64,000 bases of DNA from Woodsholea maritima DSM 17123 (GTDB lineage Bacteria; Pseudomonadota; Alphaproteobacteria; Caulobacterales; Maricaulaceae). Location: contig NZ_KB908056.1 in assembly GCF_000382325.1 (NCBI RefSeq), forward strand, positions 335,722 to 399,721, written 5' to 3'. A model generated the notes under the pieces. It had not been told where the DNA came from. It did not search any database and saw nothing but the letters and a program-made list of their open reading frames with translations. Each line of letters begins with the position of its first letter. The stretch's first letter is position 1. Positions 15,166 to 24,256 of the stretch are shown here, piece by piece. A program made the position numbers and the translations under genes.

Positions 15166-15205
15166 CTTGGCTTGCTTGGTCAAATAGCCCTTAGGAGCTC
15201 CTCCC

Positions 15206-15520
15206 ATGCGTATCCTTTTGTCTGCCTCTGCCCTTGTTCTTACTCTGTCTGTGTCTGCTTTCGCGGCCCCTTCAAACCGTTATGAAATTCGCTATAATTC
15301 TGACGAATTGACCATTCAAAGCGGCGTTGAGCGCCTGGAGCGTCAAATCCGCAATGCCGCTGAAAACGTTTGTAATGCTGACTCAGCGCGTAGCCTGACT
15401 GAAATTCGTATCGCCCGCGAATGCGTAAGTGAATCTGAGCGTCGCGCTCTCGACGTTCTTCACGAACGCGTTCGTAACGCCAATAGCGAAAATGGCTCAA
15501 TCACTGTTGCCTCTCGCTAA
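15206..15520 (+). CDS. UrcA family exported protein
   Basis: A 104-residue protein with a clear Sec signal peptide (residues 1-20, ending SAFAAP). The mature domain reads YEIRYNSDELTIQSGVERLE, then a helix, NVC, a second Cys in ECV, and a final Ala/Leu-rich helix, as in UrcA proteins. The two cysteines could form a disulfide in the periplasm. The ATG follows AGGAG at 8 bases. Strong hairpins on both sides show it is an independent transcription unit. The biochemical role of UrcA proteins is unknown. Confidence 0.82.
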   Translation: MRILLSASALVLTLSVSAFAAPSNRYEIRYNSDELTIQSGVERLERQIRNAAENVCNADSARSLTEIRIARECVSESERRALDVLHERVRNANSENGSITVASR

Positions 15521-19798: not shown

Positions 19799-20179
19799 TT
19801 ATAATCCCTGCTCTAAATCACTCGGCAACACCCAATCCCCCTCGTCATTGCGCCGGATCAAGCGCACGCTTTCAATCGCGCTGAAGGGTAAGGGGCCATA
19901 AAGATGAGGAAATAGCGCACCGCCGCGCGATTTTTCCCACTTCAGACGATCATTGACTGACGCAACACGGATCTTGGCCAGGGCCAAGCGCTCAACACCG
20001 TCAAAATGAAGGCTCAATGTGTCTTCCAATTGCTCACGTCGCGAACAATGGATGTAGCCATCGCGATCATCAAGCGCCTCGCCCGCGAATGCACCCGATA
20101 GCGAGGCTTGCGCCATCGCCTCAGGGGCGGCAAGGCGGTAAATATAAACATCTTGGGGAAGGGTCTGGGTTTTGCTCAT
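19799..20179 (-). CDS. DUF952 domain protein
   Basis: A 126-residue cytoplasmic protein. The pattern IYRLAAPEAM, then DRDGYIHCSRREQLEDTL (about 46-63), then FPHLYGPLPFSAI and a C-terminal VRLIRRNDEGDWVLP match DUF952, a small family with an ADP-ribosyltransferase-like fold and unknown activity. The chosen ATG gives normal family length; in-frame starts further up to 20254 are possible. It lies 5 bases upstream of pyrD, a pairing often seen in alphaproteobacteria, so the two are probably one operon. Confidence 0.82.
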   Translation of the reverse strand: MSKTQTLPQDVYIYRLAAPEAMAQASLSGAFAGEALDDRDGYIHCSRREQLEDTLSLHFDGVERLALAKIRVASVNDRLKWEKSRGGALFPHLYGPLPFSAIESVRLIRRNDEGDWVLPSDLEQGL

Positions 20180-20266
20180 AGCTTGGGCCATAGCCCGCAG
20201 CGCAGCCGAATGCAAGCATTTGAACAGGCGTGTAAGAGGACGTGCCTCCCACACGCGTCAATACAT

Positions 20267-20500
20267 TTAGACGTCACAACTTCCAAAGCTAAGACGTTCC
20301 GAATATCGCGTATAATCACCCCAGCTGCTGAAACCTGCAAAGCAGTCATACTCAACTTCGCCCACTAATAGCTGATGGTCTTTATCGGCATAATAGCGAA
20401 TGATAAAAAGCTCCTTAGGAACCCTTGTCACAATCGCCGCACCGCCGACCAAAGCAGACACCAAAAATACACTCAGAACAAAGACTTTAGAGAGTGTCAT
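20267..20500 (-). CDS. Small exported two-Cys protein, paralog 1 (DUF6289-like)
   Basis: A 77-residue protein with a hydrophobic signal or anchor (about 5-25) and a short mature part. The core shared with three neighbours is aromatic-x-aromatic, YYA, seven residues, VG, five residues, C, then WGDYTRY and a final C (FGSC). It resembles small exported proteins grouped as DUF6289, an assignment from memory. No strong ribosome site precedes the ATG. The preceding paralog's terminator separates it from that gene. Function unknown; the two cysteines could form a disulfide after export. Confidence 0.62.
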   Translation of the reverse strand: MTLSKVFVLSVFLVSALVGGAAIVTRVPKELFIIRYYADKDHQLLVGEVEYDCFAGFSSWGDYTRYSERLSFGSCDV

Positions 20501-20551
20501 GATTAGTCTGTCTCACATTTTGATATTTTTATGATCGCAAACGCACAATTG

Positions 20552-20583
20552 AAAAGCGCCAGATGAGAAACCCATCTGGCGCT
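20552..20583 (-). terminator. Terminator after exported-protein paralog 2
   Basis: Perfect 11-bp stem AGCGCCAGATG / CATCTGGCGCT with a 7-base loop. Read on the minus strand it is followed by TTTT. It begins just past the stop of the gene at 20589. Confidence 0.85.
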
Positions 20584-20588
20584 TGGAC

Positions 20589-20819
20589 TTAACAAGGCCC
20601 GTAAGAAATCCGGGTTCGGTAGGATGTACGCTCCCCCCACGAATAGAAGCGAGAGCCACAGTAATATTCCAGACCGCCCACAACATTGGTTTTGGACGGG
20701 TTGGAGAAATAAATCACTTCAAAGGCTTCATTGGGCAGAGCGACAACAGCGGTTGCAGCGGCGCTAGCCAGCAATCCTGCTGAACACAAAGCAAGTGTAA
20801 TCTTTTTAGAGATCTTCAT
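20589..20819 (-). CDS. Small exported two-Cys protein, paralog 2 (DUF6289-like)
   Basis: A 76-residue protein with a Sec-type signal peptide (about 1-24, rich in Ala) and a mature segment of the shared family: FEVIYFSN, VVGGLEYYCG, FYSWGERTSYRTR and a terminal GPC. It ends exactly on the second conserved cysteine. Only 12 bases separate it from the stop of paralog 3, and its ribosome site is weak, so it is probably translated by coupling within a two-gene operon. An in-frame GTG at 20828 is possible. Function unknown. Confidence 0.68.
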   Translation of the reverse strand: MKISKKITLALCSAGLLASAAATAVVALPNEAFEVIYFSNPSKTNVVGGLEYYCGSRFYSWGERTSYRTRISYGPC

Positions 20820-20831
20820 AACGTGCACCGC

Positions 20832-21104
20832 TTAGTAGTAACCACCACCATTTTGATCACACCAACCCACGACATAGCGGGTTGAATAAGAGGTTTGCTG
20901 CCCCCAAACTTGGGTCCAAACGTGACCTGATGAACAACGGTCTACACCGTAGCCGACTTCAGTTGTTTTAGCGCTGTTGGAATAGTAGGTATATTCCCAC
21001 ATTTTGGAACTGAACAAAGCAAAGGCTGAAGCAGATACTGAAACAGCACCCAGAGTAGCGGCTAGAATTGCGAATACGGCTGTTTTTTTCTTGATTGAAA
21101 ACAT
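20832..21104 (-). CDS. Small exported two-Cys protein, paralog 3 (DUF6289-like)
   Basis: A 90-residue protein with a signal peptide (about 1-28, ending ASAFA). The mature part follows the family pattern: WEYTYYSNSAKTTEVG, DRCSSG, a 3-4 residue insertion, VWGQQTSYSTR, GWC, and an added Gly/Tyr tail. The ATG at 21104 is preceded by an exceptionally good GGGAGGAGAG site, which rejects the longer frame to 21152. It is probably the first gene of an operon with paralog 2 and strongly expressed at the translation level. Function unknown. Confidence 0.7.
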   Translation of the reverse strand: MFSIKKKTAVFAILAATLGAVSVSASAFALFSSKMWEYTYYSNSAKTTEVGYGVDRCSSGHVWTQVWGQQTSYSTRYVVGWCDQNGGGYY

Positions 21105-21254
21105 GATGTTTTCTCTCCTCCCTTTATGGTTAACGGAGAAAAAATATCTCACGGTGAGAGAAAAATCACGCTCGAATTCAATGAATTTGATAAATTATAT
21201 TGTATGAACTGAAACAGGCATCTAAGTGTTCACCCCACCATTTAGCGAGAGAAT

Positions 21255-21272
21255 GAGGGGCCGTCGCCCCTC
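21255..21272 (-). terminator. Hairpin after exported-protein paralog 4
   Basis: Perfect 7-bp stem GAGGGGC / GCCCCTC with a 4-base loop, 6 bases past the stop of the gene at 21278. It lacks a T tract, so termination efficiency is uncertain. Confidence 0.5.
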
Positions 21273-21277
21273 ACCCG

Positions 21278-21511
21278 TTAAAAACCATCACAGTCCTGCG
21301 TTAAGTCGACATACTCATAATATGGCGTTCTTGAACCATTGAAGTAAAAACGCCCATCGCACAGAACCGCTTCTTCACCAACACGCGTCACCATTTCCGG
21401 CCCCGAGTAGTAAGTAATTGAGTAGTATTGACTCACCGCATGTGCAGCATATGTACCGACAACAGCAATCAAGCTCACGGCTAAGCCAATTTTAAGTCCT
21501 AAGCTTTTCAT
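21278..21511 (-). CDS. Small exported two-Cys protein, paralog 4 (DUF6289-like)
   Basis: A 77-residue protein with a signal peptide (about 1-25, ending AAHAV). The core is YYSITYYSGPEMVTRVG, LCDGRFYF, a Gly-containing turn, TPYYEY and a final QDC. It lacks the Trp of the WG pair found in the other three (FNG instead). The ATG follows GAGGGAT. It is flanked by hairpins on both sides and so is a separate transcript. It is the most diverged member of the four-gene family. Confidence 0.66.
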   Translation of the reverse strand: MKSLGLKIGLAVSLIAVVGTYAAHAVSQYYSITYYSGPEMVTRVGEEAVLCDGRFYFNGSRTPYYEYVDLTQDCDGF

Positions 21512-21560
21512 AGTTTATCCCTCACGGTGATGAATAACATGTTTAAGGATTTAGAAGCAT

Positions 21561-21599
21561 CCTATTGGGGGATTTTTTCAAATAAAATCCCCCAATAGG
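21561..21599 (-). terminator. Terminator of the ICMT-like methyltransferase gene
   Basis: Perfect 16-bp inverted repeat CCTATTGGGGGATTTT / AAAATCCCCCAATAGG with a 7-base loop, directly adjacent to the stop codon at 21600. The A/T pairs at the loop side supply a T run within the stem on either strand. Confidence 0.82.
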
Positions 21600-22037
21600 T
21601 TATACCCAGCGCCGTACACGCTGACAATAGGCGCGATACTCATCGCCAAAAGTGGCGCGCATATACGCCTCCTCATAAGTGATCCAGGTGAAATTCATCA
21701 CCAGACCAAACACGACAACAGGGATCAAGGCCCCGGCTGAGCCCAGGAAAAGCCACGCCCCGAGCAAGGCCAAAAGAAAGCCCAAATACATGGGATTACG
21801 AGAGTATTTGTAAACGCCATCATGAATGAAGCGCGTTGGGGCTTTATGGCTTCGCACATTCGCGCCGTGGCGACGAAAGCGCCCCGCCTGACCCATCGTC
21901 AGCACCAAGCCGATCATGATCAGTGCCAGCCCCACCCAGCGATAAGGCCCCGAGACCCATTTCGCGAGGGGCCAAAACTTATGAATAATCACCATGGCCA
22001 TCAGAGCTTCAAAAAAAAGGATCGGAGGAAGAAACAT
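21600..22037 (-). CDS. ICMT-like membrane methyltransferase
   Basis: A 145-residue membrane protein of the isoprenylcysteine O-methyltransferase/phospholipid methyltransferase group. Four hydrophobic segments are followed by the conserved C-terminal cofactor region: GVYKYSRNPMYLGFLLALLG, then EEAYMRATFGDEYRAYCQRV. Members use S-adenosylmethionine; in bacteria the substrate is usually unknown. The ATG at 22037 is preferred over GTG at 22058. It is downstream of a MarR gene, and a palindrome matching one upstream of that regulator lies 25 bases before its start, so it is a likely MarR target. Confidence 0.8.
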   Translation of the reverse strand: MFLPPILFFEALMAMVIIHKFWPLAKWVSGPYRWVGLALIMIGLVLTMGQAGRFRRHGANVRSHKAPTRFIHDGVYKYSRNPMYLGFLLALLGAWLFLGSAGALIPVVVFGLVMNFTWITYEEAYMRATFGDEYRAYCQRVRRWV

Positions 22038-22061
22038 AACAACCACATCACACTCCACTTT

Positions 22062-22076
22062 GTTAAGCGGCTAAAC
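22062..22076. promoter_or_regulatory. Palindromic site in front of the ICMT-like gene (probable MarR operator)
   Basis: GTTAAGCGGCTAAAC lies between the MarR stop and the methyltransferase start. Read on the other strand it differs at one central base from the site in front of marR at 22624-22638 (GTTTAGCAGCTTAAC), once that site is reverse-complemented. Half sites are GTTAAGC and GCTAAAC. Confidence 0.5.
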
Positions 22077-22102
22077 TTAATAAGCAAATAAAAAGCGAAG
22101 GC

Positions 22103-22600
22103 CTACTTCGCTTTCTCATGCGCCTCACTGTCAGCGAAATGCGCGATGATCTCGCCCATCTCTGCCATAACCTTCAGGGCCTGATCGAGGCGCACCTCCA
22201 TATCCGGCCCATAATAGTCCCTAAAGGTCTGATACATCGCCCTATGGAACGCCTTATGGGCCGCAACCCCTTTTTCGCCCAAAGCGCTTAAGACCAGGAC
22301 AATCTCCTTACTATTACGTCCTGCCTGGCGCGTAATCAGACCTTTATCCTCTAACCGGCGCGCCATTTGCGACATCGCCCCGCGTGTCACGCCCATGCGT
22401 TCGGCCAAATCCTTCATAATCGCGCCCTGACTATCGCCAATGGCCTGAAGGGTATGGATTTCCGCACGATGTAGAACAACGCCGGTATTGAAGGTGCGGG
22501 GAGCCTGGTCAATCTCTTGCGCCCTCATCATGACATGGTGGAACAGCTCAACCAATTGGTCGACCTTGTTCGCGTCATGATGACAGCCCTTAAAACTCAC
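22103..22600 (-). CDS. MarR family transcriptional regulator
   Basis: A 165-residue winged-helix regulator. The helix-turn-helix is AIMKDLAERMGVTRGAMSQMARRLEDKGLI (about residues 79-108), followed by the wing (RQAGRNSKEIVLVLSALGEKG). Long N- and C-terminal helices form the dimer interface. The GTG at 22600 has GGGAG 5 bases before it; GTG at 22618 is also open. The ICMT-like gene follows in the same direction. Matching palindromes lie before both genes, suggesting autoregulation and control of the methyltransferase. The ligand is unknown. Confidence 0.85.
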   Translation of the reverse strand: MSFKGCHHDANKVDQLVELFHHVMMRAQEIDQAPRTFNTGVVLHRAEIHTLQAIGDSQGAIMKDLAERMGVTRGAMSQMARRLEDKGLITRQAGRNSKEIVLVLSALGEKGVAAHKAFHRAMYQTFRDYYGPDMEVRLDQALKVMAEMGEIIAHFADSEAHEKAK

Positions 22601-22623
22601 GCGCACTCCCTGCGACACAGATT

Positions 22624-22638
22624 GTTTAGCAGCTTAAC
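22624..22638. promoter_or_regulatory. Palindromic site in front of marR (probable autoregulatory operator)
   Basis: GTTTAGCAGCTTAAC lies between the lysK stop (22670) and the marR start. It is the reverse complement of the site at 22062-22076 except for the central base. The spacing is right for blocking a marR promoter in this gap. Confidence 0.5.
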
Positions 22639-22669
22639 ACGCTCTCTTCAAGCACAAAATGAGCCCCCC

Positions 22670-24256
22670 TTAGGAGAGCTCACCGCGCAGACCCTTTTCA
22701 ATCAGGCCAATCGTCTCTGGCACGCCATAAATGGCAGCAAAACCCCCAAAGCGCGGGCCTTGGGATTGCCCCAGCAGCACCTCATACAGCGCCTTGAACC
22801 AGTCGCGCAGCTGTTCGATACCAGCGTCTTTACCGGCGGCAAAAACCTCGGTCTGGATCACTTCGGCATCGGTCTCCCCCGGATCGAGCGCCTTAAGGCG
22901 CGCCACCAAGCCTTCCATGGCTTGGCGCTCTTGATCCGTAGGCGCACGATAGACTTTGGTCGGTTTGACGAAGTCTTCGTAATAGGCAATCGCATAACCC
23001 GCCAAACGGTCGAGGAAAGGATCACTTTGTGGGCTCGCTTCTGGGGCATAGCGTGAAATAAAGGCCCACAGCGCCGCCTTGGTTTCGACATTGGCCGCAG
23101 AGACCAAGTTCAACAGCAAGGCATAGGTGATGTCTGAGCCTGGCTGTGGCGGATTACCATCATGGATGTGCCAGACCGGATTTTCGATCTGCTGTTTACG
23201 CTCCTGCGTGGGATAGGCCGCCAAATGCTGGCGATACTCATCCACCGCCTTGGGGATCACATCAAAATAGAGCCGCTTGGCCGTACGCGGTTTTTGGAAC
23301 ATGTAAAGCGCCAGGCTTTCTTGCGGGGCATAGCGCAGCCATTCTTCCACCGCCAAGCCATTGCCCTTAGACTTGGAGATCTTTTCACCCTGATCATCCA
23401 AAAACAGCTCATAGACATATTGCACAGGCTGTTCACGGCCTAAAATCCGGCAGATTTTTGAGTAAACCGGGGCATTAGACTGGTGGTCCTTGCCAAACAT
23501 TTCAAAGTCCACACCCAGCGCAGCCCAGCGCATGCCAAAATCTGGCTTCCATTGCAGCTTAGTGCGCCCGCCGGTCACCGGCATGGTGATATCTGTCCCG
23601 TCCTCATCCTCAAAGGTGATCGTGCCAGCCTTGGCATCAATCGCCTTCATCGGCACATATAAAACCCGGCCCGTGGTGGGAGAGATCGGCAGGAAAGGCG
23701 AATAGGTCGCCTGACGCTCCGCGCCCAAAGTCGGCAACATCACCGCCATAATATCGTCGAACTTCTCCAAGGCATGCAGCAAGGCCTCATCAAACGCGCC
23801 GGAGCGATATTCATGGGTCGCAGAGCGGAATTCATACTCAAAGCCGAAGCTATCCAAGAAAGAGCGCAAACGCGCATTATTATGCTGAGCAAAGCCCTCA
23901 TGAGTGCCGAAGGGGTCGGGCACATCGCTTAACGGCTTGTGCAGATGCTCGGCCAACATCTCTTGATTGGGCAAATTGGTCGGCACTTTACGCATGCCAT
24001 CCATATCATCAGAAAAAGCGATCAGCTTGGTTGGATATTTATCCTCACACAATTCGCGAAAGGCATGGCGCACCATCGAGGTGCGCGCCACCTCCCCAAA
24101 CGTGCCGATATGAGGAAGGCCAGAAGGGCCATACCCCGTTTCAAACAGGACGTAATCACCCTTCATGCCCTGCTTCTCCACCCGTTTGAGCAAGAGGCGG
24201 GCCTGTTCAAAGGTCCAGGCCTTAGCCGTTTGGGCGAGCGCAGAAAGATCACTCAT
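22670..24256 (-). CDS. lysK: Lysyl-tRNA synthetase, class I
   Basis: A 528-residue class I enzyme that charges tRNA-Lys. The HIGH-type motif is [15 protein letters not shown] (about 44-58) and the KMSKS-type motif is KISKSKG (about 290-296), followed by the class I LysRS helical C-terminal domain. Class I LysRS replaces the common class II enzyme in most alphaproteobacteria and in many archaea, so this is the expected housekeeping form. It may share a transcript with the downstream marR gene, 51-69 bases away. Confidence 0.94.

What the first reader, a model, noticed from the sequence alone, without database searches (positions are those of the whole stretch)
20267..21511. Array of four paralogous small exported proteins with two conserved cysteines
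Four adjacent minus-strand genes encode 76-90 residue proteins with signal peptides and a shared core: aromatic-rich YYS segment, VG, Cys, WG..T.Y, and a closing Cys. Sequence divergence is high but the spacing is kept. Transcription is split by perfect hairpins, and one member has an unusually strong ribosome site. The region is more A/T-rich than its surroundings and holds nothing else. I recall a similar unstudied family (DUF6289), with no function. A multi-copy exported disulfide-type miniprotein family could be a toxin/immunity, adhesion, signalling or surface-coat system.
Basis: partly seen in the sequence, partly recalled or inferred. Interest (0 to 1): 0.65.

Follow-up and report, generated by a model that had tools for sequence, protein, structure and literature searches.

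The report
Four tandem exported DUF6289 mini-proteins
Four neighbouring genes encode tiny exported proteins, each with one conserved cysteine pair, of a recognised but unstudied bacterial family (DUF6289); they are real and conserved, similar arrays occur in unrelated bacteria, and their function is still unknown.

Summary
Four minus-strand genes (77, 76, 90 and 77 aa) with signal-like N-termini share a Y-VG-C-(W)G-T-Y-C core in an A/T-rich stretch (44.6% GC against 55.6% for the window). One passes the Pfam DUF6289 cut-off, two match below it, and the 90-aa member joins only through relatives in other Caulobacterales. No other convincing copy was found in the genome. The family is sporadic: 4 of 398 genomes across the phylum (this one included) pass the cut-off, but 17 of 79 in one other family of the phylum match, where tandem sets of 2-4 copies recur. 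At one conserved site there, convergent with an S46 peptidase, copy number ranges from 1 to 4. Orthologue pairs elsewhere show purifying selection (dN/dS 0.06-0.35). AlphaFold2 gives the 76-aa member a confident four-stranded beta sheet (pLDDT 91.5); PDB fold matches are led by beta-prism I proteins, but none is significant. No immunity gene, transporter, plasmid, phage or defence link was found, and most mature proteins are acidic. I read it as an exported, disulfide-stapled beta-sheet module that binds or assembles outside the cytoplasm; a toxin is less likely. Function is inferred, not shown.

The parts
20267..20500 (-). P1: 77-aa exported DUF6289-like protein, mature pI about 4.6
   Evidence: ORF; DUF6289 E=0.0011, 19.6 bits, below the 27.3 cut-off; shares the invariant columns
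20554..20584 (-). perfect 12-bp hairpin just downstream of P2, possible terminator of the P3-P2 unit
   Evidence: the repeat finder; folding z -5.2; not flagged by the terminator scan
20589..20819 (-). P2: 76-aa exported DUF6289 protein (an upstream in-frame GTG at 20828 would add 3 residues); 12 bp after P3, probably co-transcribed with it
   Evidence: DUF6289 E=3.4e-8, 34.1 bits, over the cut-off; AlphaFold2 pLDDT 91.5, four strands
20832..21104 (-). P3: 90-aa exported relative with a longer loop between Cys1 and WG and a Gly/Tyr-rich tail; strong ribosome site
   Evidence: ORF and SD AGGGAGGAGA; no Pfam DUF6289 hit; 39% identity to P2, z 7.5; tree places it with long-loop relatives, support 90/84
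21148..21157 (-). TCACCGTGAG in the leader of P3
   Evidence: 2 copies in the window, 0 of 100 shuffles reach 2; 8 copies in the genome, the other 6 not in leaders of small exported genes as far as read
21250..21276 (-). G+C-rich hairpin just downstream of P4, possible terminator
   Evidence: folding z -3.8
21278..21511 (-). P4: 77-aa exported DUF6289-like protein, mature pI about 4.1; lacks the W of WG (NG)
   Evidence: DUF6289 E=0.0093, 16.7 bits; conserved columns
21521..21530 (-). TCACCGTGAG in the leader of P4, overlapping its likely ribosome site
21561..21599 (.). perfect 16-bp hairpin separating the upstream PEMT-like gene (21600-22058) from P4
   Evidence: the repeat finder; folding z -6.1

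Best explanation
A tandem array of four DUF6289-type genes. Each encodes an exported mini-protein (about 49-61 residues after the signal) that folds as a small four-stranded antiparallel beta sheet, probably stapled by a disulfide between the end of strand 2 and the C-terminus. Shown: the genes, the family relation, recurring arrays in other lineages, purifying selection in relatives. Predicted: the sheet (P2 only). Inferred: export by the Sec route, the disulfide, and the role: the sheet, aromatic-rich and too small to have a core of its own, is stable as an oligomer and works outside the cytoplasm as a binding or assembling module (lectin-like or envelope/surface-associated), with paralogues providing variants expressed from two or three separate units. 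No enzyme site is apparent.
For: Family: Pfam DUF6289 over cut-off for P2, sub-threshold for P1 and P4. Shared invariants Y, VG, C, G, T, Y, C. Real proteins: orthologue pairs in Brevundimonas and in family f47 have dN/dS 0.06-0.35. Arrays elsewhere: 2-4 copies in four genera of f47, a pair in one Brevundimonas, and 1-4 copies at one conserved site in five genera. Fold: P2 model pLDDT 91.5, pTM 0.70, strands 4-11, 19-26, 30-35, 40-48 with Cys 27 and Cys 49 at strand ends. PDB matches are led by beta-prism I proteins (jacalin-type lectins; TM up to 0.69 on the query), E >= 1. Mature proteins 15-21% aromatic, mostly acidic. No general operon partner found.
Against: No fold match is significant (best E 1.0). 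The P3 model is poor (pLDDT 54). No ligand or partner is known. Export and disulfide were not tested. The four window genes have no close orthologue, so selection on them was not measured.
Confidence: 0.35

Rival explanations
1. Secreted antibacterial proteins (bacteriocin-like) or toxin/immunity sets.
For: Small, exported, one cysteine pair, multi-copy, sporadic distribution.
Against: No linked immunity or transporter gene; no PADLOC match; no plasmid or phage relatives; mature proteins mostly acidic to neutral; purifying selection in relatives; copy-number change at a fixed site.
Confidence: 0.12
2. Surface-coat or self-assembling (amyloid-like) subunits, working like Streptomyces chaplins (small exported paralogues with two cysteines; from own knowledge).
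For: Paralogous, aromatic-rich, beta-sheet, exported, cysteine pair.
Against: No sequence relation to any coat family in Pfam; copy number is often one, as in most Brevundimonas hits; not hydrophobic (GRAVY -0.27 to -0.69 in the window).
Confidence: 0.15
3. Secreted inhibitors or regulators of extracytoplasmic peptidases.
For: In six loci of five genera of family f47 the genes lie convergent with an S46 peptidase gene.
Against: The window genome and three members of its family with DUF6289-like genes hold no S46 peptidase; the linkage is convergent, not an operon, and was not seen in the Caulobacterales loci examined.
Confidence: 0.1
4. Periplasmic stress or envelope-maintenance proteins that act inside the periplasm.
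For: Signal sequence and cysteine pair fit the periplasm; strong conservation within individual subfamilies.
Against: Patchy presence, 4 of 398 genomes over the cut-off across the phylum, argues against a general envelope function.
Confidence: 0.2

Closest known systems
Pfam PF19806 (DUF6289), family of unknown function
   Same: P2 over the cut-off, P1 and P4 match weakly; same Y, VG, Cys, WG, T, Cys order
   Different: P3 is missed by the model and has a longer Cys1-WG loop; P4 lacks the W. No paper in the open library mentions the family
Beta-prism I proteins (jacalin-related lectins)
   Same: Top fold matches are of this fold; the prism is three bundles of four antiparallel strands (PMC6359319) and P2 is one four-stranded sheet
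   Different: One sheet, not three; matches not significant (E >= 1); no demonstrated sugar site; no sequence relation
Streptomyces chaplins (from own knowledge)
   Same: Small exported paralogues with two conserved cysteines
   Different: No match to any such family in Pfam; less hydrophobic

Membership tests
DUF6289 (PF19806) | Score over the curated cut-off of 27.3 bits | tested here: met
   Met by P2 only (34.1 bits). P1 19.6 and P4 16.7 are below; P3 has no hit, so P1, P3 and P4 are called relatives, not certified members
DUF6289 (PF19806) | Two conserved Cys with VG before the first and G..T.Y between them | tested here: met
   Invariant in all four and in ten aligned Caulobacterales sequences, P3 included
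DUF6289 (PF19806) | N-terminal export signal | tested here: inconclusive
   Hydrophobic N-termini seen by eye; no signal predictor available
Beta-prism I lectins | Three four-stranded sheets forming a prism | tested here: not met
   One four-stranded sheet per chain; an oligomer was not modelled
Beta-prism I lectins | Carbohydrate binding | not testable with these tools
   Needs a glycan-binding assay
Anti-phage defence or toxin/immunity | Match to a known defence family, or a linked immunity gene | tested here: not met
   No PADLOC hit; flanks are DUF952, pyrD, PEMT-like, MarR, lysS

The most novel reading that the evidence does not exclude
Each DUF6289 protein is one third of a beta prism, and three chains, possibly different paralogues of one array, assemble into a disulfide-stapled lectin-like prism, so that arrays generate binding variants by mixing subunits.
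Probability: 0.07. Interest if true: 0.65.

Novelty: new member of a known kind. Interest (0 to 1): 0.32.

Why it matters
DUF6289 has no described function. The work here shows that its genes recur as tandem arrays in two distant lineages of one phylum, are under purifying selection, and probably fold as a single small beta sheet. It also shows that the Pfam model misses part of a long-loop subfamily. That makes the family testable: small, probably soluble exported proteins with a clear knockout design.

Tried and rejected
S46 peptidase inhibitor as a general role: rejected, since the window genome has no S46. Phage or plasmid carriage: nothing found. Defence: no hit. Shared operator TCACCGTGAG: suggestive only, 8 copies in the genome, the other 6 apparently inside or beside unrelated coding sequence. 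Recent local quadruplication: neither shown nor rejected (AU p 0.27). A diverse alignment (A2) could not be used for the collection scan; a closer one found only Brevundimonas loci. No solved structure by sequence: best E 0.3, a chance dehydrogenase match. P3 fold: too poor to search. Viral fold library: nothing significant. Literature on DUF6289: none in the open library. Phyla other than the window's own were not sampled.

Full report
What is there. Four minus-strand genes lie between a DUF952 gene (19799-20254 by the longest reading) and a PEMT/ICMT-like membrane methyltransferase gene (21600-22058): P4 (21278-21511), P3 (20832-21104), P2 (20589-20819) and P1 (20267-20500), in order of transcription. 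They encode 77, 90, 76 and 77 residues. P3 and P2 are 12 bp apart and probably one unit. Strong hairpins follow P4 and P2, and a perfect one separates P4 from the upstream gene. None was flagged as an intrinsic terminator, so splitting of transcription is likely but not shown. The stretch is 44.6% GC in a window of 55.6%.

More than chance. Mature parts give pairwise alignment z-scores of 3.3-12.7 against shuffled sequence, and the order and spacing of Y, VG, Cys, G..T.Y and Cys are kept. P2 alone passes the Pfam DUF6289 cut-off (E 3.4e-8); P1 and P4 match at 0.001 and 0.009; P3 does not match. P3's membership rests on 39% identity to P2 and on intermediate relatives with a similar long loop in Brevundimonas and in the window genome's own family. 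Scores from profiles that contain the window sequences are circular for those sequences and are used only for new hits.

Distribution. The window genome belongs to the same order as Brevundimonas: the contig that holds G042's match has the length of the Brevundimonas sp. Root608 contig found (67,290 bases) and its protein is identical, hence Caulobacterales. The four copies are the only convincing ones in the genome. Pfam's model finds 4 of 398 genomes over the cut-off across the phylum, the window genome among them, 10 of 81 Brevundimonas at E 0.001 and 17 of 79 in family f47 of the same phylum. A wider profile adds three singletons in the window genome's own family, at sites away from that genome's DUF952 gene where this can be compared.

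Arrays recur. In f47, tandem sets of two to four lie in four genera, and a same-strand pair lies in one Brevundimonas (L056). Six loci of five f47 genera share one site, convergent with an S46 peptidase gene, with one to four copies. This is copy-number change at a fixed site. The S46 link is not general: the window genome and three relatives with DUF6289-like genes lack S46.

Selection. Orthologue or close-homologue pairs give dN/dS of 0.06-0.35 (counting method, short sequences, some dS near saturation). The proteins are real and constrained. For the window's four, no near orthologue exists, so this was not measured.

Site. MATE-pyrD-DUF952 is conserved in relatives, and in one (G028, locus L093) lysS lies 1.6 kb from DUF952 with other genes between. 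The array thus occupies a variable slot in an otherwise conserved neighbourhood. No mobile-element gene was recognised next to it.

Fold. AlphaFold2 on mature P2 with a ten-sequence alignment gave pLDDT 91.5 and pTM 0.70 with four strands; the cysteines sit at the ends of strands 2 and 4. P3 gave pLDDT 54. Fold matches in the PDB are led by beta-prism I proteins (jacalin-related lectins and relatives; that PirB, Dln1 and the lamprey protein carry such domains is from memory) with query TM up to 0.69, but the best E is 1.0. The beta-prism I fold is three bundles of four antiparallel strands (PMC6359319). This is a lead only.

Mechanism. A signal-like N-terminus, a small stable sheet, high aromatic content, acidic to neutral charge, no catalytic signature and no fixed partner fit a stand-alone binding or assembling module outside the cytoplasm. 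Confidence in that function is about one third. A toxin is less likely for the reasons given in the rivals.

Verdict. It is a new array of a known, unstudied family rather than a new kind of system.

Noticed in passing
L040, L042, L043, L044, L045, L050: DUF6289 genes, 1-4 copies, lie convergent with an S46 dipeptidyl-peptidase gene at one conserved site in five genera of family f47.
   Followed up: partly
window 21148-21157 and 21521-21530: The 10-mer TCACCGTGAG occurs twice in the window, both times in leaders of array genes; the other six copies in the genome appear to be in or beside unrelated coding sequence.
   Followed up: partly
window 15188-15520: A 110-residue exported-looking frame with a weak hit to the array profile (E 0.0005), probably from its signal sequence; no Pfam family. 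It recalls UrcA-type proteins, from memory only.
   Followed up: partly
window 20182-22670 and L093:2952-4599: The stretch between lysS and DUF952-pyrD differs in gene content between the window genome and a relative, in an otherwise conserved neighbourhood.
   Followed up: partly
L032, L034, L037, L038, L039, L086, L087: A long-loop subfamily (extra residues between the first Cys and the G..T motif); the Pfam DUF6289 model misses some of these and scores others low or just over its cut-off.
   Followed up: partly
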